In this document: piece after piece, positions 10,938 through 36,557 of the stretch
How positions within the stretch are numbered: the stretch's first letter is position 1
Layout of the letters: every line of letters begins with the position of its first letter
Made by a program: the position numbers and the translations under genes
Virus record (IMG/VR): IMGVR_UViG_3300036862_000024
Span: 1-40,119 of that record
Reading direction: 5' to 3' (one strand)
Length of the DNA stretch: 40,119 bases
Source: a virus
Notes under the pieces: generated by a model
The model's database searches: none
Told to the model about the DNA's origin: nothing
The model's input: the letters and a program-made list of their open reading frames with translations, nothing else

Positions 10938-12572
10938 ATGACCATCGCGTCCACGGCTTACCGAGCGGATTACTACTCGAACGGCGTCACGGTGGCCTAT
11001 CCGTTCACGTTCAGGATCTTCGCGGCCACGGATCTCTCCGTTCTGCTCAACAACATTCCGACGACGAACTTCACCGTTACGGGCATCGATGTGGACGCAG
11101 GCGGCACGGTCACGCTCGGGGTAGCTCCGGCGTCAGGCGTTCTGGTCTCCATCATCAGCAACGTCCCGGCCACGCAATCCGTCCACTATCCGACGAACGA
11201 TCCATTTCCCGCCGCGACGCACGAGAAAGCGCTCGACAAGCTGACGCGGCTCGTGACGCAGGCTATCGGTATCGCCACGCGCTCGGTGAGGTTCGCGGCG
11301 GGCAGCGTGAACGCCGCGGCAGGCGCGATCATGCCGGATCTCGTGGCCTCGACCTATCCGCGCGTCAAGGCCGATTGCTCCGGCTTCGATCTCGTCACGC
11401 TGCAGGTCACCACCGGCACCTACGTCAATCCGGTCACGACGAAGGGTGACCTCATCATCGGCGACTCCACGGGCACGCAGGCGCGGCTCAGCTACGCCGT
11501 GGATGGTGACTACCTCGGCGCGACGGCGGGACTCCCCGCGTGGCGCACGCCCGCGCAGGTGCGGAGTGACGTGTCCGTCCAGCCCGACAACTGCGACGTG
11601 ATCGCGTCGGCTGCGACCCTCCCTGTCACATGTTCGAAGTACCAGACGGTCACCGGTTCAACGGGGGTCACGGCGCTGGCGCCGCAGCCGCCCGGCACCG
11701 CCATCACGCTGACGTTCGCCTCGACGCCGAAGCTGACGAACGGCTCGACGCTCCTGCTGGAAGGCTGCGGATCGTTCACCGCCGTTGGCTGCGACACGAT
11801 GACGCTGGTCAGCGAGAGTTACGCGGGGACGTGGCGTGAGCTGTCGCGGAGTACGCGCCCCGCCGAGCGTCCTCTGAATCTGCGGATCCAGCGCAACGCG
11901 GCGACGCCGGCGACCAAACTCGATGTCACGGCCGATCAACTCATCGTCGGCGGCGTTTCGGTGCCGAGTTTCGCCGTGACGATCGACGCGAGCGTGGTGG
12001 GCGCGAACGGCATCGACGCGGGCGCGCTGACGACGTGCACGCTCTACTACGTCCACGCGATCTACAATTCGTCCCTCCATACGGCAGCGGGGCTGATCTC
12101 GACCTCGGAGAGCGCGCCGACGGTGCCCGGCAGCTTCACGCGCTCGCAATTGCTCGGGGCCATGCGGACGGATGCCTCGAGCAACTTCCTCGACGGCTAC
12201 CAGCAGGACGACGAGTTTTTCTACACGGTGCCGATCGTCATCTGCACGTCGAACGTCGCCACGCTGCGGGCGCAGGACTGCGACCTCTACGCGATCCACA
12301 AGCTCGTGCCGCAGACTACGGCGAAGGGCTATACGCTGGAAATCGTGCCCGCCAACACGCAGATCATCTATCTGCACTGGACGAACTTCTCCCCGGGTGA
12401 TGGCAAGGCCATCGCGCGCGCGGGCAGCCAAGACAACACCGGCAACGGGATGCGTGGGCACGTCTACCTTCCAGCCAATTGCGCGACAGCCACGAAGTTC
12501 TCGTGGGGATCGAACCTCGCCGGCGCGGCCACCATCTACGTCACGGGCTGGAAGATGCGGTTCAAGGGGTAG
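10938..12572 (+). CDS. Tail fibre protein with T7 gp17-like head-binding N-terminus
   Basis: A 544-residue protein, ATG preceded by a strong GAGGAGGTGA at proper spacing. Residues 1-125 match the T7 tail fibre N-terminal domain: Y-x-x-NGVTVAYPFTFRIF, a strand with LLNNIPTTNFTVTGID, then PATHEKALDKL-type residues and a short helix. This part attaches to the tail; the remaining beta-rich, Thr/Ser/Gly/Ala-rich part should bind the receptor. It has no visible esterase or depolymerase motif and no collagen-like repeats. It closes the virion block and precedes the lysis genes. Confidence 0.85.
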   Translation: MTIASTAYRADYYSNGVTVAYPFTFRIFAATDLSVLLNNIPTTNFTVTGIDVDAGGTVTLGVAPASGVLVSIISNVPATQSVHYPTNDPFPAATHEKALDKLTRLVTQAIGIATRSVRFAAGSVNAAAGAIMPDLVASTYPRVKADCSGFDLVTLQVTTGTYVNPVTTKGDLIIGDSTGTQARLSYAVDGDYLGATAGLPAWRTPAQVRSDVSVQPDNCDVIASAATLPVTCSKYQTVTGSTGVTALAPQPPGTAITLTFASTPKLTNGSTLLLEGCGSFTAVGCDTMTLVSESYAGTWRELSRSTRPAERPLNLRIQRNAATPATKLDVTADQLIVGGVSVPSFAVTIDASVVGANGIDAGALTTCTLYYVHAIYNSSLHTAAGLISTSESAPTVPGSFTRSQLLGAMRTDASSNFLDGYQQDDEFFYTVPIVICTSNVATLRAQDCDLYAIHKLVPQTTAKGYTLEIVPANTQIIYLHWTNFSPGDGKAIARAGSQDNTGNGMRGHVYLPANCATATKFSWGSNLAGAATIYVTGWKMRFKG

Positions 12573-13709: not shown

Positions 13710-13903
13710 GGCTCGCGATTGCCGCCCTTCTGCTCTTCGCCGCATGCTCCCCGGTGACGCCTCCGACTCCACCACCACCCCCGCCGCCCAACACTCACGC
13801 GCCCAATCTCCCGAAGGAATGCGCCGCACGCGGCGGCACGTGGTCGCCGGTCATGTCCGATACCGGACGCGTCGTCGGTCACGCCTGCGTGACGCCACAA
13901 TGA
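13706..13903 (+). CDS. Small lipoprotein (o-spanin candidate)
   Basis: A 65-residue protein with a textbook lipoprotein signal: MRLAIAALLLFAACS, lipobox LFAAC with Cys14 and Ser at +2, which favours outer-membrane sorting. The mature part starts with a Pro-rich run (TPPTPPPPPPP) and ends in a small Cys-containing domain. Proline-rich outer-membrane lipoproteins next to lysis genes are typical Rz1-like o-spanins, which complete lysis of Gram-negative cells. Start and stop both overlap neighbours by ATGA. The C-terminal domain is longer than in many Rz1 proteins. Confidence 0.65.
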   Translation: MRLAIAALLLFAACSPVTPPTPPPPPPPNTHAPNLPKECAARGGTWSPVMSDTGRVVGHACVTPQ

Positions 13904-14727
13904 GCCGCTACGGCTGGCGCCGACAGAATCCCGACCTCCGCGACTACACGGTGCGGCATCCGCTCGTGGCCGCGATGCTGCGACGCACGCGCGTGGGCGA
14001 ACCGCTGCCGTCCTCGGTTGATCTCCGCGAAGGGTGTGCACCGATTCAGGACCAGGGGCACCTCGGGAGTTGTACCGCGTTCGCGGCGGCGGGCGTGCTG
14101 ACTTTCATGGAGTACCGGGCGACTGGAAAGTATGTCGATCCGTCGACCCTCGCGATCTACAAGTGGACCCGCGACGCAATGGGATTGATCGGCGATTCGG
14201 GGGCCGACATCAGAACAACGATTCAGACGATCGTCAACCCCGGTGCCCCACCGGAGTCACTCTGGCCTTACGACATCGCCCGCTTTGACGAAGAGCCCCC
14301 GGACGATGTGAAACTCGCGGCACACAACTACCGCGCGCTGACCTACGTGTCGATCGACCCGCCCGACGTGCCTGCGGTCCTCGCGCTCGGCAACGTCAAG
14401 CGTCTGCTCGCCAGCGGCATTCCCGTGATGTACGGATTCACCGTCTACAAGAACGCGATCGACGCCGCTGAGCGATCCGGGCAGATTCCGTTTCCGTCAA
14501 AGAACGATTCCGTGGAAGGTGGCCACGGGAATAGCTGGGTTGGCTACGACGACGATCTCGTGATCGCCGGTGACCAAGGCGCACTGCTCTCGCGTAATCA
14601 ATGGGGCACCGGCTGGGGCGAGGACGGCTACGGCTGGCTCCCGTACCGCTATCTGCTCGACGGACTCGCGTCCGATCTCTGGGCCGTGCTCAGCGAGTCG
14701 TGGGTCGAGACGGGGCGGTTCTCGTAG
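13900..14727 (+). CDS. Papain-like (family C1) cysteine peptidase
   Basis: A 275-residue protein with all C1 catalytic elements in order: Gln52 and Cys58 in IQDQGHLGSCTAFAAAG (oxyanion Gln and nucleophile), His209 in EGGHGNSWVGYDDD, and Asn233 in SRNQWGTGWGEDGYGWLPY. The opening YGWRRQNPDLRDY is the usual start of prokaryotic C1 enzymes. No signal peptide and no long inhibitory propeptide is seen, so it probably acts in the cytoplasm or is carried in the virion. ATG overlaps the lipoprotein stop (ATGA), and it is the last gene of the late operon. Targets are unknown: maturation of a phage protein, attack on host or competitor proteins, or lysis. Confidence 0.85.
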   Translation: MSRYGWRRQNPDLRDYTVRHPLVAAMLRRTRVGEPLPSSVDLREGCAPIQDQGHLGSCTAFAAAGVLTFMEYRATGKYVDPSTLAIYKWTRDAMGLIGDSGADIRTTIQTIVNPGAPPESLWPYDIARFDEEPPDDVKLAAHNYRALTYVSIDPPDVPAVLALGNVKRLLASGIPVMYGFTVYKNAIDAAERSGQIPFPSKNDSVEGGHGNSWVGYDDDLVIAGDQGALLSRNQWGTGWGEDGYGWLPYRYLLDGLASDLWAVLSESWVETGRFS

Positions 14728-15572: not shown

Positions 15573-15721
15573 CGCTCTTTCATGAGAACGCCGATCCATT
15601 CGCACCCGTGACCTTCGCTGTCACAGACGCATTCGGTCACGCACCAGTGCTGGCAGCGATGACACCAGCGTTCTTCCGTCCTCACGCGACGGCAATAGAT
15701 TGGCGTTTTCTCGTCACTCAT
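15569..15721 (-). CDS. Cys-rich zinc-knuckle micro-protein
   Basis: A 50-residue product with seven Cys: YC, then WCHRCQHWCVTECVCDSEGH and CEW. The C-x-x-C and C-x-C pairs plus two His suggest one or two structural zinc sites. Its ATG (15721) lies in the ATGA overlap with the O-antigen ligase-like gene. An in-frame longer start exists but would overlap that gene further. Function unknown. Confidence 0.6.
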   Translation of the reverse strand: MSDEKTPIYCRRVRTEERWCHRCQHWCVTECVCDSEGHGCEWIGVLMKER

Positions 15722-16749
15722 CGCACAATCTCCGCTGATATCGCGAGGAACGTCAAGCCGATCGGTGGATTCCGAAACGGGTTGTGACCGAGCGAAAGCA
15801 CGAGGCCCGTGATCCACGCCGCTGACCACGGGTCACCGAGTCTCAGGTGTGGCGCGACCGTCGCCACGAAGGCGAGACCGCCGAGGAAGCCGACCACGCC
15901 GTACTCGTATAGCAACTGCAGCGGCTCGCAGAACGCATCCCCGCACGGGAGTTCGATCCCGCCGTACTGGCTCATCCAGCGCATCGAAGAGCGCTTCATG
16001 CTGTCCGGTCCCATGCCGAGCAGCCACGTGCCGGTGCGCGTCAGTTCGCGCGGAATCATCCGCCAGACCCACAGGCGCGAGAGGATCGAGTCCATGGAGT
16101 CGCTGCGCGGCGTCCAGTTGAACAGGCGGCGACCGGCGACGCTCGGCGACCAGAGCCAGAGAATCGCGACGCTGAGGCCGCTGGCTGCCACGTAGGGCCA
16201 CGCGGAGGGGTAGAGCCAGACGAGACCAGCGGCCACGCCGAGGAACGCCAGCCAGGACCACGTGAGGTAGAGGCCGATGCTGAGGAGCAGCCAGCCAGGG
16301 CCGGGCATGAACGGCGCGACCAGCGCGATGTACATCGCGGTATTCGCCGGGGAGCCAAACGAGCCCTTGGGGCGTGTCGTGCGCTGGCGGTCGATGACGA
16401 GCAGGAGCACCTGAACCAGCGCGAAGCCGATCCAGACCGCAGCGATGGCGTCGAAGTAGAACGGGAAGCCTCGAGGAATCGACCGCAGTACCCACCACGT
16501 CGCGCCGATCGCCGACCACGTGACCACGGACGAGCGGATCGTCCACGGCGCCGGCATGCGGGGCCACGCGCAGAGGTGCCAGAACGCGAGGACCGCGAGC
16601 CAGAGGTGCGCCGGCGCGAGGATCACGACGCCGAGCGCGAGCACGACCATGAGCCAACGGTCTCGCGCGTAGGACAGCTCGGCGCCGGAGATGTAGCGGA
16701 GCGCGAGGGCGGGCGCGAGCGCTGCGGCGAGCACGAGGACTAGCGTCAT
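15718..16749 (-). CDS. Polytopic membrane protein, O-antigen ligase/polymerase-like (Wzy/WaaL superfamily)
   Basis: A 343-residue, multi-span membrane protein. Two regions match the O-antigen ligase superfamily: FGSPANTAMYIALVAPF (131-147), like the conserved G-x-x-x-N-x-x-A segment, and SRLWVWRMIPREL then WLLGMGPDSM (224-251), with CEPLQLLYEYGVVGFLGGLA (274-293) in place of the usual H-N-x-x-L-Q-x-x-x-E-x-G-x-x-G. The classical His is a Cys-Glu here. Family members polymerise or ligate O-antigen units on the periplasmic face. In a phage, this could alter the host surface to block superinfection or re-adsorption. It overlaps the zinc gene by ATGA and follows the methyltransferase by 4 nt. Confidence 0.7.
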   Translation of the reverse strand: MTLVLVLAAALAPALALRYISGAELSYARDRWLMVVLALGVVILAPAHLWLAVLAFWHLCAWPRMPAPWTIRSSVVTWSAIGATWWVLRSIPRGFPFYFDAIAAVWIGFALVQVLLLVIDRQRTTRPKGSFGSPANTAMYIALVAPFMPGPGWLLLSIGLYLTWSWLAFLGVAAGLVWLYPSAWPYVAASGLSVAILWLWSPSVAGRRLFNWTPRSDSMDSILSRLWVWRMIPRELTRTGTWLLGMGPDSMKRSSMRWMSQYGGIELPCGDAFCEPLQLLYEYGVVGFLGGLAFVATVAPHLRLGDPWSAAWITGLVLSLGHNPFRNPPIGLTFLAISAEIVR

Positions 16750-28791: not shown

Positions 28792-29121
28792 GTGGCTGAT
28801 ACGCTCACACCTCGTCACGGTGTTGACGCTGTTCCGCCGAGAGATGCGCGTCTCGGCAATCTGCGTTTCGAAGACCTTCGCCAGATGGCGCTATCCGAGC
28901 TCGAATGGATCGCGCGGCACGCCAGCCGCGCCGCCACCCGCCTCAACGCGATCAAGGAAATCGTCGCGCGCACTGACCCGGTGCCGAAGGTCGTGAATGA
29001 CGATCCCCAGCGCCCCATCGCCGTCGCCATCTTCCTCGCCCCAGCCGCAGCGCCTCGAGCTTTATCCGACACCAACGGTGTCGTCGTTCATCGAAGCGGT
29101 CAGAACGGGCACGAAGCGTGA
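28792..29121 (+). CDS. Putative terminase small subunit
   Basis: 109 residues, GTG start with a strong ribosome site. The core is helical (RFEDLRQMALSELEWIARHA then ATRLNAIKEIVART), which could be the DNA-binding helices, followed by a Pro/Ala tail. It immediately precedes and overlaps terminase large by 125 nt. No clear family signature; the call relies on position. Confidence 0.5.
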   Translation: MADTLTPRHGVDAVPPRDARLGNLRFEDLRQMALSELEWIARHASRAATRLNAIKEIVARTDPVPKVVNDDPQRPIAVAIFLAPAAAPRALSDTNGVVVHRSGQNGHEA

Positions 29122-30487
29122 GGTTGCCGCGTTCGGCGCCCGCGGCGATGGCAAGACCTGGGGCGCGCTCACCGCGATGATCGCGCACGCGCAGCAGCAC
29201 CACGCGTCCGGTTTTCCTCTGCCAGTGAAATGGCTGGGCGCGACCGGCACCTTCGAAGGCCACAAGAGCAAGACGCACGATTCGCTGCAGGCTGCGGGCT
29301 GGCGTGGCTGCTGGACCCTCCACGACCAGGGCCATCAGGCGACGTTCGACATCAACGGGCAACGCTTGGTTGATCTCCGGCTCTTCGGCGTCGAAGACGA
29401 AAAGGGGATGGAACGGCTGCGCGCAGAAGCGCATTGCGTGTGGTTCGAAGAGGCGGCACCGGCCGAAGAGATCGGCTCGCGCGGCATGAGCGAGAATCAC
29501 TGGGGCATGGCCATCACGTCCATGCGCTTGCCCTCGCACGCGAACGTGGCCATCGCCACGCAGAACTATCCCGACGAAGAGCACTGGACGTGGCAGCGCT
29601 GGCACGAGCGCGAGCATCCGGGCTCCCTCATGTTCGAAATTCCGCCCGGCGAGCGCGCAACGGCCGAGCAACGGTCATCGTGGGCGGAAGCGATCAAAGA
29701 TCCCGTCATGCGCAAGCGACTCATCGACGGCAAGCCGGGCACGATTGTGCCGGGGCGACCCGTCGCGCACGGGTTCAACGAAGCGGTGCACGTCAGCCGC
29801 GTGCCGCTGCATCCGCGTCCAGGCGGGCAGCTCTGGCTCGGACAAGATGGCGGGCTCATGCCTGCGACGGTGATCGGTCAGCGATCGGGAGGCCGGATCG
29901 AAATCCTCGCAGGCATGACCTCGCACCACGCGGGCATCCGGCAGCACTTCAAGTACGTGCTCATCCCGTGGCTCGGCGAGCACGCGCCGTGGATCCTCGA
30001 GATCGACCGGCCGAATACCCTGCTGCACGTTTGCTACGACGAAACGATGGACACCGACTCGCAGGCCGACTCCGAGACGAATCCGCTCCAGGTCATGCAC
30101 CAGTTGCTCCCAGGGATTTATCGCCCCGGCCAGAACAACCCGTGGTCGTGGCGTCGTGATCCGCTGCTCGCAGCGCTGAGTTCGATGGACGACGGCGTGC
30201 CGATGGTCGTCGTGGACCGAAGCTGCAAGCAGCTCATCCGCGCATGGAACGGGATGTGGCACTACGCGATCACGAGCGTCGGCGACGTGCGCAAGGAAGA
30301 GCCGAAGAAGCCATATGCGCCGTGGGCCGACCTCGGGGATGCCTCGGCGTACCTCATCGCGGACATGGCGCCGACGCGCGGGATGCGCACGCGAGGCCCG
30401 AAGAAACCGGCGACGCTCGCCTTCGACCCCTACGCCTACGACCGCACGCCGCAGCGCCGCCCGGCGACGATCGAGTTCACGCCGTGA
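28997..30487 (+). CDS. Terminase large subunit
   Basis: 496 residues, ATG with GAAGG ahead. The ATPase domain has Walker A in FGARGDGKTWGAL (47-54) and Walker B in VWFEEA (148-153), with a Q-N at 189-190 as coupling motif. The RNase H-like nuclease has Asp284 in LWLGQDGGLMPA, further acids at 352-358 and Asp in DLGDASAYLIAD near the end. It pumps DNA into the prohead and cuts concatemers. The full set of catalytic residues is present. GTGA overlap with the next gene. Confidence 0.9.
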   Translation: MTIPSAPSPSPSSSPQPQRLELYPTPTVSSFIEAVRTGTKREVAAFGARGDGKTWGALTAMIAHAQQHHASGFPLPVKWLGATGTFEGHKSKTHDSLQAAGWRGCWTLHDQGHQATFDINGQRLVDLRLFGVEDEKGMERLRAEAHCVWFEEAAPAEEIGSRGMSENHWGMAITSMRLPSHANVAIATQNYPDEEHWTWQRWHEREHPGSLMFEIPPGERATAEQRSSWAEAIKDPVMRKRLIDGKPGTIVPGRPVAHGFNEAVHVSRVPLHPRPGGQLWLGQDGGLMPATVIGQRSGGRIEILAGMTSHHAGIRQHFKYVLIPWLGEHAPWILEIDRPNTLLHVCYDETMDTDSQADSETNPLQVMHQLLPGIYRPGQNNPWSWRRDPLLAALSSMDDGVPMVVVDRSCKQLIRAWNGMWHYAITSVGDVRKEEPKKPYAPWADLGDASAYLIADMAPTRGMRTRGPKKPATLAFDPYAYDRTPQRRPATIEFTP

Positions 30488-30669
30488 GCCTCTTCCGCGG
30501 CGACGTGTTCGATCCGCCGATTCCGCCACCGCGCAAGCACGCGACGCCGGGCGCCGAGATCAGCGGCTTCTTCGTCGCCATCGTCGTCATGTTCGGACTC
30601 GCGGCCGATGTCGCGCTCTGCGTGCTCGCGTTCAAACTCCTGCGGCACTACCTCGGAGGTGGTGACTGA
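30484..30669 (+). CDS. Small membrane protein, 61 residues
   Basis: GTG start in a GTGA overlap with terminase large. A Pro/Arg-rich head (DPPIPPPRKHATPG) leads to a membrane helix (ISGFFVAIVVMFGLAADVAL) and a basic/Gly tail. It overlaps the first secreted-protein gene by TGATG. It could be a partner of the secreted proteins or a lysis gene, as T7 has Rz beside its terminase. Confidence 0.6.
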   Translation: MSLFRGDVFDPPIPPPRKHATPGAEISGFFVAIVVMFGLAADVALCVLAFKLLRHYLGGGD

Positions 30670-31652
30670 TGCGTCGATGGCTCCTCGCGCTCCTGCTGCT
30701 TCTGCTGCCTGCCGTCGCCTCGGCGCAGACGACGTTCACGCTGAGCGTCGCGTCCACGAACTGCGAATTCGCGCTCTCGTGCGCGGGCATCTCGACCACG
30801 AACGCGCCGAACGGCACGATCCAGATCAGCGCGAACGCCTCGGGCAACACGATCAGCTTCGAGACGAGCACGAACGGGAGCACGTGGGTCGCGATCAGCG
30901 TCACGCCGGTCGCCTCCACGACCACGGTGACCAGCACGACCGGGACCGGCGTGTGGACGTTCCAGGCGCAGCCGCTGTTCCGTGCGCGGCTGTCCACGCT
31001 CGCAGGCGGGACCACGACGGTCACGCTTATCAGCACGAGCGCGCGGATGGGCGGCTCCGGCAGTGGCGCGGGCCTCTCGCCGCCACTGACGACGGACGGC
31101 ACGAACCTGACGAACACAGGGCAGTATCTCGGCCCCGCAGGCGCCGTCGGCACGCCCACCTTCGCCGACGTGAACGAACCCACGAAGAAGGGCTGGTGGT
31201 TCAGCGGGACCGGCACCTCTGGGCGCATTCGCTCGGCGATCAACGGCGTGAGCTACGTCGACATCACGCAGAACGGCATCGAGATGGCCGCAAGCAATCT
31301 CGGCGTGCTCTGGTCGGGCACGGCGTCCGATCCGACCGCCGCGAAGGTACTGCGCGCGTACATGGCGAGCAACGGCGTGCTCACGCTCGACAACGCCGCG
31401 GGCGGCGCTGGGACGCTCAAGGTCGTCGGCATGGCCCAAGTCGGCGGGACAACGGCCTTGACGCTGACACAGGGCGCATTCGGGTTCACGGCGATCACGG
31501 CGTCTGCCTCTGCGCCGGGTGCGTCGGGTGGCAAGCTGGAGCTCGTCTGCGGCACGAATCCGGGCACAGCGAAGTTGATCATCTACGCGGGCACGAGCGG
31601 GACAGCCGTCCCGGTGACGGACAACATCGGCGCGGGGGTCACGGGATGCTGA
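30669..31652 (+). CDS. Secreted fibre-like protein with signal peptide
   Basis: 327 residues. Residues 1-20 (MRRWLLALLLLLLPAVASAQ) are a classic Sec signal with A-x-A cleavage before Gln20. The mature part is Thr/Ser/Gly/Ala-rich and beta-type with the look of a phage tail-fibre tip: a GLSPPLTTDGTNLTNTGQYLG segment, repeated NGI/GVL strands, and a closing KLELVCGTNPGTAKLIIYAG. A signal peptide is not expected on a virion fibre, because it would export it from the cytoplasm. Ends in Cys. Confidence 0.7.
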   Translation: MRRWLLALLLLLLPAVASAQTTFTLSVASTNCEFALSCAGISTTNAPNGTIQISANASGNTISFETSTNGSTWVAISVTPVASTTTVTSTTGTGVWTFQAQPLFRARLSTLAGGTTTVTLISTSARMGGSGSGAGLSPPLTTDGTNLTNTGQYLGPAGAVGTPTFADVNEPTKKGWWFSGTGTSGRIRSAINGVSYVDITQNGIEMAASNLGVLWSGTASDPTAAKVLRAYMASNGVLTLDNAAGGAGTLKVVGMAQVGGTTALTLTQGAFGFTAITASASAPGASGGKLELVCGTNPGTAKLIIYAGTSGTAVPVTDNIGAGVTGC

Positions 31653-31981
31653 GTCGTTTCGCGCTCATCGCGCTGTTGCTCCTCGGCGCCGGATGGCCTC
31701 CCTCGAACTGGCTGAGCGGTACGCCGACCATCGGGGCGTGTGGAACCGGCTCGCCGACCGTAACCGCTGGTAGCACCAACGGGTCAGGCTCGGTCACGAC
31801 CGGCACCGTAACGACCTCGTGCTCGATCAACTTCTCCGCAACGCTCGCCGCGCCGCCGACCTGTGTGGTGTCAAGCTCCTCGAGCGCGATCGGGCTCGGC
31901 TGGTCAACGTCAACCTCCGCGCTGACCGTCGTGCTCTCCGCAAGTCTCGGCGGCGGGAAGATCAGCTACCTGTGCTGGTAA
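31646..31981 (+). CDS. Secreted single-domain protein resembling a fibre-tip domain
   Basis: 111 residues, ATG 7 nt before the previous stop. A hydrophobic N-terminus (SRFALIALLLLGAG) acts as signal or anchor. The rest is Thr/Ser/Gly-rich with four Cys: GACGTG, SCSIN, TCVVSS and the end GGGKISYLCW. That order of C, SCT/S-strand, P-x-CVVSS and GGGKI-x-Y-x-C is one I know from C-terminal tips of environmental phage fibres. Here it stands alone with a signal. Confidence 0.65.
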   Translation: MLSRFALIALLLLGAGWPPSNWLSGTPTIGACGTGSPTVTAGSTNGSGSVTTGTVTTSCSINFSATLAAPPTCVVSSSSSAIGLGWSTSTSALTVVLSASLGGGKISYLCW

Positions 31982-32574
31982 GGTTCGCGTTCGTCCTCGC
32001 GCTCCTGCTTCTGCCGTTCGCCGCCGAGGCGCAGATGTCCTTCACTCGCCTCGATGACGGCCTCGGGCACACGTGCAGGGAGTGGCTGGCTACTGACCCG
32101 GACGGTATCATCCGCGCCCACGTCTTCTGTAACGTGCCGACGATCTATCACGGCACCGGCCAGTCGCAGGCAATCGTCTTCGATCCTTACGTGTGCTTCG
32201 GCGGCCAGTACGCCGACTGCAACAAGCGCCGCGTGACGATCAACGAGTATCAGGCGGAAGACTTCGCGATCATCGGCACGAACGGCGCGCACGCCATGAT
32301 GTTTCTTGCGAGTCCAATCGGCGCGACGGGCCATGAGAAAAACAAGGCCATCAAGTTCGCCGAGAACTACGATCCCGTCACGGGGTCGAAGACCTACGTC
32401 GCGGGCGTCTTTGTCAACTGGTGTTCGGCCGATCAAGGCGGCTGCGACCAGTATCCTCTCGGCCTGCCGTCGAACACGCTCGCGCTGTTCAACTACTGGC
32501 TCGCGAAGGCGTATGGGATCTTCGATCCGGCCACGAATATCCCGATCTGCGGGCTCGGGACGATCCCGTGCTGA
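31972..32574 (+). CDS. Secreted Cys-rich protein of unknown function
   Basis: 200 residues; starts at GTG 31972, overlapping the previous stop. Signal peptide MLVRFAFVLALLLLPFAAEAQ with A-x-A cleavage. The mature 180 residues contain eight Cys (HTC, FCN, VCFGG, DCNK, WC, GCDQ, ICG, IPC), which suggests disulphides formed in the periplasm. No enzymatic motif is recognisable. Third signal-peptide gene in a row. Confidence 0.65.
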   Translation: MLVRFAFVLALLLLPFAAEAQMSFTRLDDGLGHTCREWLATDPDGIIRAHVFCNVPTIYHGTGQSQAIVFDPYVCFGGQYADCNKRRVTINEYQAEDFAIIGTNGAHAMMFLASPIGATGHEKNKAIKFAENYDPVTGSKTYVAGVFVNWCSADQGGCDQYPLGLPSNTLALFNYWLAKAYGIFDPATNIPICGLGTIPC

Positions 32575-32627
32575 CCGGCCCCTACGCGTTCTTCCGCGTG
32601 AATCGCTACTACAGCATGGAGCGCCAC

Positions 32628-32711
32628 ATGATGCGCTGGCTCTGCCGCAACGTCCTCGGCCACGACTGGCACGAGGGCGAGTGTCGGCGCTGCACGGACA
32701 CGCTGTGGTGA
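32628..32711 (+). CDS. Zinc-knuckle micro-protein, 27 residues
   Basis: ATG 32628 with GGAGCGCCAC ahead. MMRWLCRNVLGHDWHEGE then CRRCTDTLW: C-x5-H-x2-H-x3-C-x2-C fits one zinc site. GTG 32568 upstream gives 47 residues. Coupled to the next gene by GTGA. Confidence 0.5.
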   Translation: MMRWLCRNVLGHDWHEGECRRCTDTLW

Positions 32712-32935
32712 GCGCGTTTGATCGGCGCATCCGCGCGTTCTTTTGTCAGCACGCGATCTATTCGTCGTGTCCGTGGTTCAGCGTCGAGACGCGCTCCGGC
32801 TTCGACTCGAAGGGCCGTCCTGGCTGGACGACGATCATCTCGATCGGGCCGTGGGAAGTCTCATCCTTCCGGCGCGAGCCGACGCGAAGGATCGGTAGAG
32901 CCGCCGCCGAGCGCCTGATCGAGGTGGACGCGTGA
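32708..32935 (+). CDS. Hypothetical protein, 75 residues
   Basis: GTG in GTGA overlap, and its stop overlaps the next GTG. Two Cys near the N-terminus (FFCQHAIYSSCPWF), a strand region (GWTTIISIGPWEV), then a basic helix. Unknown family. Confidence 0.55.
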   Translation: MSAFDRRIRAFFCQHAIYSSCPWFSVETRSGFDSKGRPGWTTIISIGPWEVSSFRREPTRRIGRAAAERLIEVDA

Positions 32936-33177
32936 AGATCGTCTGGATTCTCCTCATGCTCCTGATGTTCGCCTCGCTCGCGTGGGCGGTGGGCGGCGCT
33001 GAGACACCGGACCTTCGCCTGATCGTGGCGCAGCAGGAGACGCGCATGTGCCGCGAGTATCAGGACCAGATGGTGAACGCGCTGGCCCGTGCGCGGCTGC
33101 AGATGGATCTGATGGCCGAGCGCATCAAGCTGCTCGAGACCAAGCCGCTGGCCGCGCCCGCTCCGGTGACGCCGTGA
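32932..33177 (+). CDS. Signal-anchored coiled-coil protein (i-spanin-like)
   Basis: 81 residues, GTG in GTGA overlap. The N-terminus KIVWILLMLLMFASLAWAVGG is a signal or anchor; next a helix RLIVAQQETRMCREYQDQ and a coil (ALARARLQMDLMAERIKLLE), ending in a Pro tail. A membrane anchor plus periplasmic coiled coil resembles the inner-membrane Rz spanin that T7 encodes beside its terminase. The o-spanin candidate lies far away at 13706, so the pairing is uncertain. Confidence 0.55.
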   Translation: MKIVWILLMLLMFASLAWAVGGAETPDLRLIVAQQETRMCREYQDQMVNALARARLQMDLMAERIKLLETKPLAAPAPVTP

Positions 33178-34670: not shown

Positions 34671-34879
34671 TGCACGCGGCCGAAGATCCGATCGAGGTCA
34701 CGCGGGAGCGGATATGGGTCTCCGGTCTTGGCTCTGCTGACGCCTGGATCGCGACCTCACGGCGGCACCGTGATCCGCAAACTCTGAAGCCGACCCGATT
34801 CGTTCGCGAGCCGTGCGTTCCCGATACCGACGAGCATTACGCGGCGTTCCTCGAACACGCGCGAGCGATTCTTGGCTGA
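34670..34879 (+). CDS. Hypothetical protein, 69 residues
   Basis: GTG in a TAGTG overlap; its end overlaps the connector start by 8 nt. Composition is mixed alpha/beta (VTRERIWVSGLGSADAWIAT) with an end helix (DEHYAAFLEHARAIL). No recognised family. Confidence 0.55.
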   Translation: MHAAEDPIEVTRERIWVSGLGSADAWIATSRRHRDPQTLKPTRFVREPCVPDTDEHYAAFLEHARAILG

Positions 34880-36557
34880 ATCCGCGTCGCAGATCCTCAA
34901 GCGGTGGACCGAGCTCGTGAACGAGCGTCGGTACTACGAGGCGCTCTGGCAGGACATCAGCGAGTTCGTCATCCCGTACAAGTCCACGATCCTGCGCAAG
35001 CTCTCGCCGGGCACGAAAAAGACCGCGCGCCTGTTCGACGCGACCGCCATCCACTCCGCGCAATTGCTCGCCGCGTCCCTGCACGGCACGCTCACGCCGA
35101 CCACGCAGCCGTGGCTCTCGCTCAAGGTGCGGCAAGAGGAACTGAACGAGATCAAGGCCGTGCGCGACTGGTTCGAAGACTGCGCGCGCCGGATGCACCT
35201 CGCGCTCAGGCAATCGAACTTCGCCACGAGCGTCCACGAGATGTACCTCGACCTCGTGGGACCGAGCGCGACGGGCTGCCTGTTCGTGGAGGAAAAGGAC
35301 CCAACGGCCACTGGCGCGTTTCGCGGTCTCCGCTTCCGCGCGCATTCGCCCGGTGAGTACGCGATTGCCGAAGACGCGGACGGGCTCGCGGATACGCTGT
35401 TCCGCTCGCTCAAGATGCCGGTGCGTGCCATCGTGCAGAAGTGGCCGACGACGGTGACCGACCGCATCGAGCAGGAAGCGAGGACCAAACCCGACGCACG
35501 GCGGGAAGTCGTGCACGCGATCTATCCGCGCACGGACTACAACGTCAAGGCCCGTGGCGGCCGCAACATGCCGTGGGCGTCCTGCTACGTGCTCGTGGAC
35601 GAGAAGAAGAAACTGGACGAGGGCGGGTATCAGGAATTCCCGTTCATGGTCCCGCGGTGGGCGAAGAACTCCGACGAGATCTACGGCAGCGGGCCGAGCC
35701 ACACCGCCTATCCCGACGTGAAGAGCCTGAACGCGGCCAAGGAATTCGTCCTCAAGGCGGCGCCGCTGGCGATGCAGCCGCCCACGGTAGAGCGCGACGG
35801 CTCGCTCGAAGGCGACCCCGACCTGACGCCGGGCGGGCGCAACGTCGTCAACGGCAGCGGGCCGCTCGCCGATCACTTCGGTTTCATGGACACGAAGAAT
35901 CGGCCGGACCTCTCGCAGCTCGTGCTGAACGATCTTCAGCAGGGCGTGCGGCGCATGTACTACACCGACCAGTTGCAGCTTCAGGAGTCGCCGCAGATGA
36001 CGGCGACCGAAGTGCAGGTCCGCTACGAACTCATGCAGCGGCTCCTCGGTCCCTCGCTCTCGCGCCAGGAATCGGAATTCCTCAATCCGCTGGTGGCGCG
36101 CGTCTTCGCGATCATGGCCCGTGCGCGGGCGTTCCTTCCCGCACCGATGGAACTCGTGCAAGCGATGCGGATCGAGAACGCGGACGCGCCGGATATCGAC
36201 GTGGAGTACGAAGGCCCGATGGCGCGGGCGCAGCGGACGATCGAGTTGACTGCGCAGGAGCGCGTGACTGGCTTCGTCGCGCAGGTGGCGCAGGCCAAGA
36301 GTCAATTCCCGACGCAAGAGTGGGACGTGCTCGACACCGACCAGATGATTCGCGACCGCGCGGAGATCACGGGCCTGTCGAGCAAGTCCGTGCGCGATGA
36401 CGACGCGGTGAAGGGCATTCGTGAGGACCGCAAGCAGCAGGAAGCCGAGAAGGCCAAGCTGCAGCAGATGGAGCAGATGGCGACGATGGCGGGCAAGGCC
36501 GCGCCCGCGCTGAAGGCCATTCAGGGCGCGCAGCAGCCGCAGGGAGCCGCGGCGTGA
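34872..36557 (+). CDS. Head-tail connector / portal protein (T7 gp8-like)
   Basis: 561 residues from TTG 34872. The family pattern is clear: an N-terminal YYEALWQDISEFVIPYKS, FDATAIHSAQLLAASLHGTL, a long central body with YGSGPSHTAYPDVKSLN and TATEVQVRYELMQRLLGPSL, then a coiled tail of Glu/Gln/Lys. Twelve copies form the ring through which DNA enters and leaves and to which tail tube A binds. Length is typical of this family. The TTG start is unusual for a major structural gene and may limit its level. Confidence 0.9.
   Translation: MAESASQILKRWTELVNERRYYEALWQDISEFVIPYKSTILRKLSPGTKKTARLFDATAIHSAQLLAASLHGTLTPTTQPWLSLKVRQEELNEIKAVRDWFEDCARRMHLALRQSNFATSVHEMYLDLVGPSATGCLFVEEKDPTATGAFRGLRFRAHSPGEYAIAEDADGLADTLFRSLKMPVRAIVQKWPTTVTDRIEQEARTKPDARREVVHAIYPRTDYNVKARGGRNMPWASCYVLVDEKKKLDEGGYQEFPFMVPRWAKNSDEIYGSGPSHTAYPDVKSLNAAKEFVLKAAPLAMQPPTVERDGSLEGDPDLTPGGRNVVNGSGPLADHFGFMDTKNRPDLSQLVLNDLQQGVRRMYYTDQLQLQESPQMTATEVQVRYELMQRLLGPSLSRQESEFLNPLVARVFAIMARARAFLPAPMELVQAMRIENADAPDIDVEYEGPMARAQRTIELTAQERVTGFVAQVAQAKSQFPTQEWDVLDTDQMIRDRAEITGLSSKSVRDDDAVKGIREDRKQQEAEKAKLQQMEQMATMAGKAAPALKAIQGAQQPQGAAA

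What the first reader, a model, noticed from the sequence alone, without database searches (positions are those of the whole stretch)
30669..33177. A cassette of signal-peptide proteins directly behind terminase large
Seen: three consecutive genes (30669, 31646, 31972) have a Sec-type signal or hydrophobic N-terminus and beta-rich or Cys-rich mature parts; a membrane protein precedes them (30484) and an anchored coiled-coil protein follows (32932). Two resemble pieces of phage fibre tips, one as a free single domain. Known: virion proteins assemble in the cytoplasm and normally lack signals. Inference: these products are exported during infection, perhaps coating receptors to block superinfection or re-adsorption, or decorating the envelope. 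This is the strongest candidate here for an undescribed system.
Basis: partly seen in the sequence, partly recalled or inferred. Interest (0 to 1): 0.7.

Follow-up and report, generated by a model that had tools for sequence, protein, structure and literature searches.

The report
Exported fibre-like proteins behind phage terminase
A virus of bacteria carries, right behind its DNA-packaging gene, a run of genes for fibre-tip-like proteins that appear to be sent out of the host cytoplasm, and other phages have added the same kind of export signal to their fibre and surface proteins, which suggests a hidden export route for phage adhesion proteins.

Summary
Of 61 called genes, the four most hydrophobic N-termini with a positive n-region are exactly those at 30669, 31646, 31972 and 32932; three have A-x-A cleavage sites. 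The first three overlap stop-to-start in the late operon behind TerL.

The cassette is not unique. A phage with a different TerL (L174) has TerL, small membrane protein, signal-bearing protein sharing the 30669 C-terminus (63% identity), second signal-bearing small protein. L175 has a signal-bearing 868-aa protein with that C-terminus, followed by a signal-bearing homologue of the 31646 product (E 8e-7). Two relatives of the window phage (L005; a Proteobacteria prophage) carry other signal-bearing blocks (FN3/BACON, LamG) before tail tube A.

Signals were added to existing virion-type modules: to the "KQST" domain in 4 of about 80 cases, not one clade, three sharing an extra cysteine pair absent from 77 others; and to two T7/epsilon15-type fibres that keep the virion-docking domain.

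Export is therefore well supported. Superinfection blocking is untested and not the leading reading. I favour late, periplasm-folded adhesion proteins released at lysis, probably joining particles. SignalP and experiments were not available; structure models failed.

The parts
28997..30487 (+). TerL, large terminase subunit; upstream gene of the same operon
   Evidence: phrog_2 E 6.7e-10; alignment with relatives at 50-54% identity
30484..30669 (+). P1, 61 aa, single TM segment, GTG start overlapping the TerL stop
   Evidence: L174 has a 46-aa TM protein at the same place; homology not shown
30669..31652 (+). P2, 327 aa, signal peptide (ASA^Q, residues 1-19), Ser/Thr-rich mature part with 4 Cys
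   Evidence: weak PHROG matches of unknown function (E 0.004 and 0.014)
31425..31652 (+). P2 C-terminal domain, shared with signal-bearing proteins in L174 and L175
   Evidence: 72% and 64% best segments; pairwise 63% over 87 aa and 64% over 50 aa
31646..31981 (+). P3, 111 aa, hydrophobic signal-type N-terminus, single 4-Cys domain
   Evidence: 28% identity over full length to the signal-bearing L175 117-aa protein, E 8e-7, 1.3e-6 in the record search; coding score weak
31972..32574 (+). P4, 200 aa, signal peptide (AEA^Q, residues 1-20), mature part with 8 Cys, no homologue found
   Evidence: no relatives; AF2 pLDDT 36
32568..32711 (+). 47-aa ORF with 3 Cys between P4 and P5
   Evidence: role unknown
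32932..33177 (+). P5, 81 aa, signal peptide or N-terminal anchor (AWA^V) followed by a helical, coiled-coil-like part
   Evidence: weak Rz-spanin match (phrog_2975, E 0.019); L175 has an unalignable protein of the same layout
10938..12572 (+). The phage's own T7-like fibre, without signal peptide; reference for comparison, not part of the cassette
   Evidence: phrog_1640 E 4e-30; starts at the docking domain

Best explanation
The cassette encodes late-made adhesion-type proteins that the host Sec pathway exports. Shown by sequence: signal peptides on P2, P4 and P5 (P3 by homology), overlapping genes in the late stretch, recurrence of P2/P3-type signal-bearing pairs in other phages, and repeated addition of signals in front of pre-existing virion-type modules together with an extra Cys pair. 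Inferred: signal peptidase I releases the products into the periplasm, where they form disulphides; they wait there while virions assemble in the cytoplasm, and at lysis both mix. The exported proteins then act at the particle or cell surface, most likely by docking onto particles as accessory fibre, spike or lectin parts. P1 and P5 would be membrane-side partners (weakest inference).
For: Signals and clustering. Same order TerL - TM - signal-bearing P2 relative - signal-bearing small protein in L174, a phage with another TerL. Signal-bearing P2-C-terminus protein plus P3 homologue in L175. Signal-bearing blocks before tail tube A in the relatives L005 and the Proteobacteria prophage. Four separate signal gains on the KQST domain, three with an extra Cys pair seen in none of 77 signal-free domains at the first position and in 2 at the second. 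Signal gain on a small neighbour protein with cleavage at the domain start. Two T7/epsilon15-type fibres with docking domain and signal, none in the other sampled homologues.
Against: No SignalP run and no experiment. The window's own fibre has no signal. No known tailed phage assembles fibres after export. P2-P4 lack a recognisable docking domain. P4 has no relatives. Several TerL relatives lack the cassette. The step 'joins particles' is inference from other phages' fibres.
Confidence: 0.45

Rival explanations
1. Superinfection exclusion or anti-re-adsorption: exported fibre-tip-like domains bind the receptor or surface glycan of the infected cell or its debris and so block other phages or keep progeny free.
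For: P2 and P3 have fibre-type C-terminal domains but no virion-docking domain, and a separate signal-free fibre exists in the window. Known exclusion proteins are exported: T5 Llp lies next to the receptor-binding gene and acts from the periplasm (PMC9586334); T4 Spackle is periplasmic with a disulphide (PMC7677548).
Against: Late-operon position, whereas Llp and Spackle are early; no usable lipobox; soluble periplasmic proteins do not reach the outer face of a Gram-negative cell before lysis; two virion-type fibres carry signals too; no homology of P2-P4 to the phage's own fibre.
Confidence: 0.2
2. Free secreted lectins or polysaccharide-active proteins released by the infected or lysing cell, which loosen or bind surface glycans and help progeny spread; never part of the particle.
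For: Related blocks contain LamG (E 7e-22 and 1e-17), FN3/BACON and a weak polysaccharide-lyase match.
Against: The window proteins themselves match no enzyme or lectin family; signals also occur on docking-domain fibres.
Confidence: 0.15
3. The N-terminal segments are not export signals but hydrophobic virion-assembly or membrane-contact segments that stay on the protein.
For: Two virion-type fibres with an intact docking domain carry them; the P3 segment lacks a canonical cleavage site.
Against: Canonical n-h-c layout with A-x-A sites; predicted cleavage falls at the start of known domains; an extra Cys pair goes with the segment.
Confidence: 0.1

Closest known systems
T5 Llp and T1-group Cor superinfection-exclusion lipoproteins
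   Same: Small exported phage proteins; Llp lies next to the receptor-binding gene and acts from the periplasm (PMC9586334)
   Different: Lipoproteins with lipobox, Llp expressed early; here no usable lipobox, late operon, several consecutive fibre-like proteins
T4 Spackle (gp61.3)
   Same: Cleaved export signal, periplasmic, disulphide-bonded phage protein (PMC7677548)
   Different: Early gene, 75-aa helical bundle that inhibits the tail lysozyme; here late, Ser/Thr-rich or Cys-rich, no sequence relation
T7/epsilon15-type tail fibres and spikes (phrog_1640 N-terminal domain)
   Same: Late adhesion proteins; two members found here carry a signal peptide
   Different: Known members start at the docking domain without signal; P2-P4 have no docking domain
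Sec-signal proteins of unknown function in Porphyromonas gingivalis phages
   Same: Phage genes with Sec signals adapted to the host (PMC10367356)
   Different: Other phages and hosts; no fibre-type cassette or domain comparison reported in the passages read
Filamentous phage coat proteins (pIII, pVIII)
   Same: Virion proteins that pass through the inner membrane with a signal peptide (own knowledge)
   Different: Different virus class, assembled by extrusion at the membrane, no tail

Membership tests
Sec-exported (SPI) proteins | Positive n-region, hydrophobic h-region, A-x-A type cleavage site | tested here: met
   P2, P4, P5 by rule-based score; P3 only through its homologue; SignalP not run
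Sec-exported (SPI) proteins | Demonstrated translocation and cleavage | not testable with these tools
   needs experiment
Llp/Cor-type exclusion lipoproteins | Lipobox with Cys directly after the h-region | tested here: not met
   P2, P4 and P5 lack a lipobox; the only pattern match in P3 (TIGAC, residues 28-32) lies beyond the h-region
Llp/Cor-type exclusion lipoproteins | Blocks receptor binding of the same phage | not testable with these tools
   needs experiment
T7/epsilon15-type fibre (phrog_1640) | N-terminal virion-docking domain | tested here: not met
   no match for P2, P3 or P4; one match in the window record, at 10938
T7/epsilon15-type fibre (phrog_1640) | Docking domain present in G022 and L198 fibres that carry a signal | tested here: met
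   E 2e-33 and 1e-29 starting at residues 38 and 33
Rz-like inner-membrane spanin (for P5) | N-terminal anchor, coiled coil, partner Rz1 lipoprotein overlapping or adjacent | tested here: inconclusive
   phrog_2975 E 0.019 only; adjacent ORF has no lipobox; not followed further
P3 family (defined here) | Signal-type N-terminus plus single Cys domain beside a P2-C-terminus protein | tested here: met
   window and L175; the L174 neighbour aligns only weakly (E 0.026)

The most novel reading that the evidence does not exclude
Some tailed phages send part of their adhesion apparatus (accessory fibres, spikes, lectin-like domains, in some lineages the main tail fibre itself) through the host Sec pathway, so that it folds with disulphides in the periplasm and meets the DNA-filled particles only at lysis: a two-compartment assembly route not described for tailed phages.
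Probability: 0.3. Interest if true: 0.9.

Novelty: new variant of a known kind. Interest (0 to 1): 0.7.

Why it matters
Textbook tailed phages build fibres in the cytoplasm, and exported phage proteins are mostly lysis or exclusion factors. A recurrent block of signal-bearing fibre-type proteins, and signals repeatedly placed in front of virion domains together with an extra cysteine pair, points either to a new class of exported surface-active phage proteins or to a fibre assembly step outside the cytoplasm. Both are directly testable, and both would change how such genes are annotated in environmental phages.

Tried and rejected
Direct homology for P2-P4 in PHROGs, Pfam, phage records, PDB and full-length IMG/VR scans, and for P4 also in plasmids: nothing significant; only the P2 C-terminal query worked. 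AF2 without an alignment for P4 and P2: pLDDT 36 and 34, discarded, no fold search run. Homology of P2-P4 to the phage's own fibre: none convincing. phmmer hits of P3 to other loci (E 0.09 and worse): chance-like alignments. P5 against the L175 coiled-coil protein: no alignment. KQST signal in L141: false positive of my rule, the domain begins at the start codon. Cysteine content alone as proof of export: rejected, because another Cys pair also occurs without signals (19 and 38 of 77); only the extra pair is informative. Wrong start codons as the source of the signals: rejected for P2 (strong Shine-Dalgarno, overlapping start) and for the G022 fibre (RBS, no usable start after the signal).

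Full report
WHAT IS THERE. The window is a 40,119-base virus record. Gene content is that of a T7-like podophage: TerL 28997-30487 (phrog_2), a portal-like gene 34872-36557, a scaffold-like gene 37864, an MCP-like gene 39061, then across the record ends tail tube genes 726 and 1320, internal proteins 5333 and 7016, and a fibre 10938-12572 with the phrog_1640 docking domain. Roles other than TerL and fibre rest on synteny, comparison with relatives and my reading. The cassette lies between TerL and portal: P1 30484 (TM), P2 30669, P3 31646, P4 31972, a 47-aa ORF, P5 32932. P1-P4 overlap stop-to-start.

SIGNALS. SignalP was not available, so I scored n-region charge, h-region hydrophobicity and the -3/-1 rule with my own script over a codon-based gene set. 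P2, P3, P4 and P5 have the four highest h-scores among genes with a positive n-region; P2, P4 and P5 have A-x-A sites. Over 1750 genes of the loci fetched by then, the base rate of strong signals is 1.8%. Four named genes within six consecutive of 61 has chance about 0.002; three strong signals within five genes has about 0.003 at the base rate. These figures were computed after seeing the cluster, so they are a guide only. Coding evidence is strong for P2, P4 and P5 and weak for P3.

RELATIVES OF THE PHAGE. TerL relatives L002, L003 and L006 (50-54% identity) have only small genes, several of them membrane proteins, between TerL and portal and no such cassette. The MCP relative L005 (59%) has a block of signal-bearing proteins before tail tube A: 114 aa, 312 aa (signal-like), 529 aa with FN3 and viral BACON matches, 371 aa without signal, and 724 aa with a KQST-type N-terminal domain. 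One relative lies in a bacterial genome, a prophage in a Proteobacteria MAG (Centralia_MAG_52). It is split over two contigs whose ends share about 57 identical bases; that they adjoin is inference. Its TerL, portal, MCP, tail tube A and tail tube B are 37, 30, 38, 35 and 38% identical to the window's. It carries three consecutive signal-bearing genes before tail tube A (395 aa; 252 aa with LamG E 7e-22; 152 aa), a signal-bearing LprI-like 69-aa protein in the TerL-portal gap (E 0.016, below Pfam's cut-off), and a signal peptide on its own fibre. Hence the host side is probably Gram-negative and 'exported' means periplasm (inference for the window).

RELATIVES OF THE CASSETTE. The P2 C-terminus found two loci. 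L174 has a different TerL and GC 52%, yet the order is TerL, 46-aa TM protein, 64 aa, signal-bearing 308-aa protein (63% identity to P2 over 87 aa), 149-aa protein with a signal-like N-terminus (these two score lower on my rule than the window's). L175 (record G022, GC 50%) has a signal-bearing 868-aa protein with the same C-terminus, then a 117-aa signal-bearing protein homologous to P3 over its full length (E 8e-7), and a signal/coiled-coil protein before tail tube A. The 868-aa protein looks like a beta-helix spike by eye, but Pfam and PHROGs gave no match. The middle parts of the P2 relatives differ while signal and C-terminus persist, and in L175 the P3 neighbour too; this argues that the signal is kept by selection.

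SIGNALS ADDED TO VIRION-TYPE MODULES. (a) KQST domain: 80 loci. Almost all proteins begin at the domain; four (L093 = L005, L120, L150, L158) have a cleavable signal in front. They do not form one clade: 0 of 200 bootstrap trees, at least two changes forced, four on the best tree (short alignment, bootstrap not settled). Three of the four carry an extra Cys pair, one just after the cleavage site (0 of 77 without signal) and one near the domain end (2 of 77). All four have another signal-bearing gene close by, against 7 of 65 loci without (p 0.0004 after a manual correction for L150; 0.003 on the raw script calls). (b) The small DTxxKRAS protein: L150 has a signal whose cleavage site meets the domain start; about a dozen homologues start at the domain. 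(c) The T7/epsilon15-type docking domain: G022's 1253-aa fibre has a 33-residue signal, an RBS and no usable start after it; the prophage fibre L198 has MKQWIPLLLLLFLLTPGRSPA before the domain. The window fibre, eight sampled phage homologues and the other 17 fibre loci from 395 genomes show none. Each of these two records gave a single phrog_1640 match, so no second, signal-free copy of that fibre type is in view (G022 may be incomplete).

MECHANISM. Shown by sequence: signal-type N-termini, clustering, recurrence, repeated gain together with an extra Cys pair. Inferred: Sec export, cleavage and disulphide folding in the periplasm, late timing from operon position. Not shown: what the proteins do. 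I favour accessory adhesion proteins that meet particles at lysis, because signals also sit on fibres that keep their docking domain. Superinfection blocking remains possible for P2-P4, which lack that domain. A free lectin/enzyme role and non-exported hydrophobic N-termini are the other rivals.

KNOWN SYSTEMS. T5 Llp (PMC9586334) and T4 Spackle (PMC7677548) are exported exclusion proteins but early, and Llp is a lipoprotein. P. gingivalis phages encode Sec-signal proteins of unknown function (PMC10367356). A study of phage DGR target proteins reports that they lack signals (PMC6199706). Paper searches found no report of signal peptides on tailed-phage fibres, within the limits of an open-access library.

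LIMITS. Rule-based signal calling, home-made gene calling, few signal-bearing cases, metagenomic records of unknown completeness, no usable structure models.

Noticed in passing
window 15718-16749 (-): 343-aa protein with many TM segments (at least 5 by my scan), O-antigen ligase/polymerase-like by eye; Pfam and PHROGs give no match. Possibly a surface-modifying gene.
   Followed up: partly
window 13900-14727 (+): Papain-family (Peptidase_C1, E 1.6e-12) protein of 275 aa in a phage genome.
   Followed up: partly
L173:14301-14510 (prophage in Proteobacteria MAG): 69-aa signal-bearing LprI-like (lysozyme-inhibitor-like) protein in the TerL-portal gap; Pfam match below cut-off (E 0.016).
   Followed up: partly
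L173 right end and L219 right end (G026:C48): The two contig ends share about 57 identical bases, so the prophage of this MAG is probably one element split by the assembler.
   Followed up: partly
L004 (OQ414635) and L195 (OQ414636): Public records of Pelagibacter phages Hodr and Baldr appear to carry each other's locus-tag prefixes.
   Followed up: no
window 36098-36190 (+): ARAGORN call with no assigned amino acid and a 4-base anticodon inside the portal-like gene; probably a false positive.
   Followed up: no
L091:3886-4989 (Manatee Spring siphophage MW202621): 367-aa signal-bearing ORF called by my script, largely unannotated, between portal and capsid genes of another phage.
   Followed up: no
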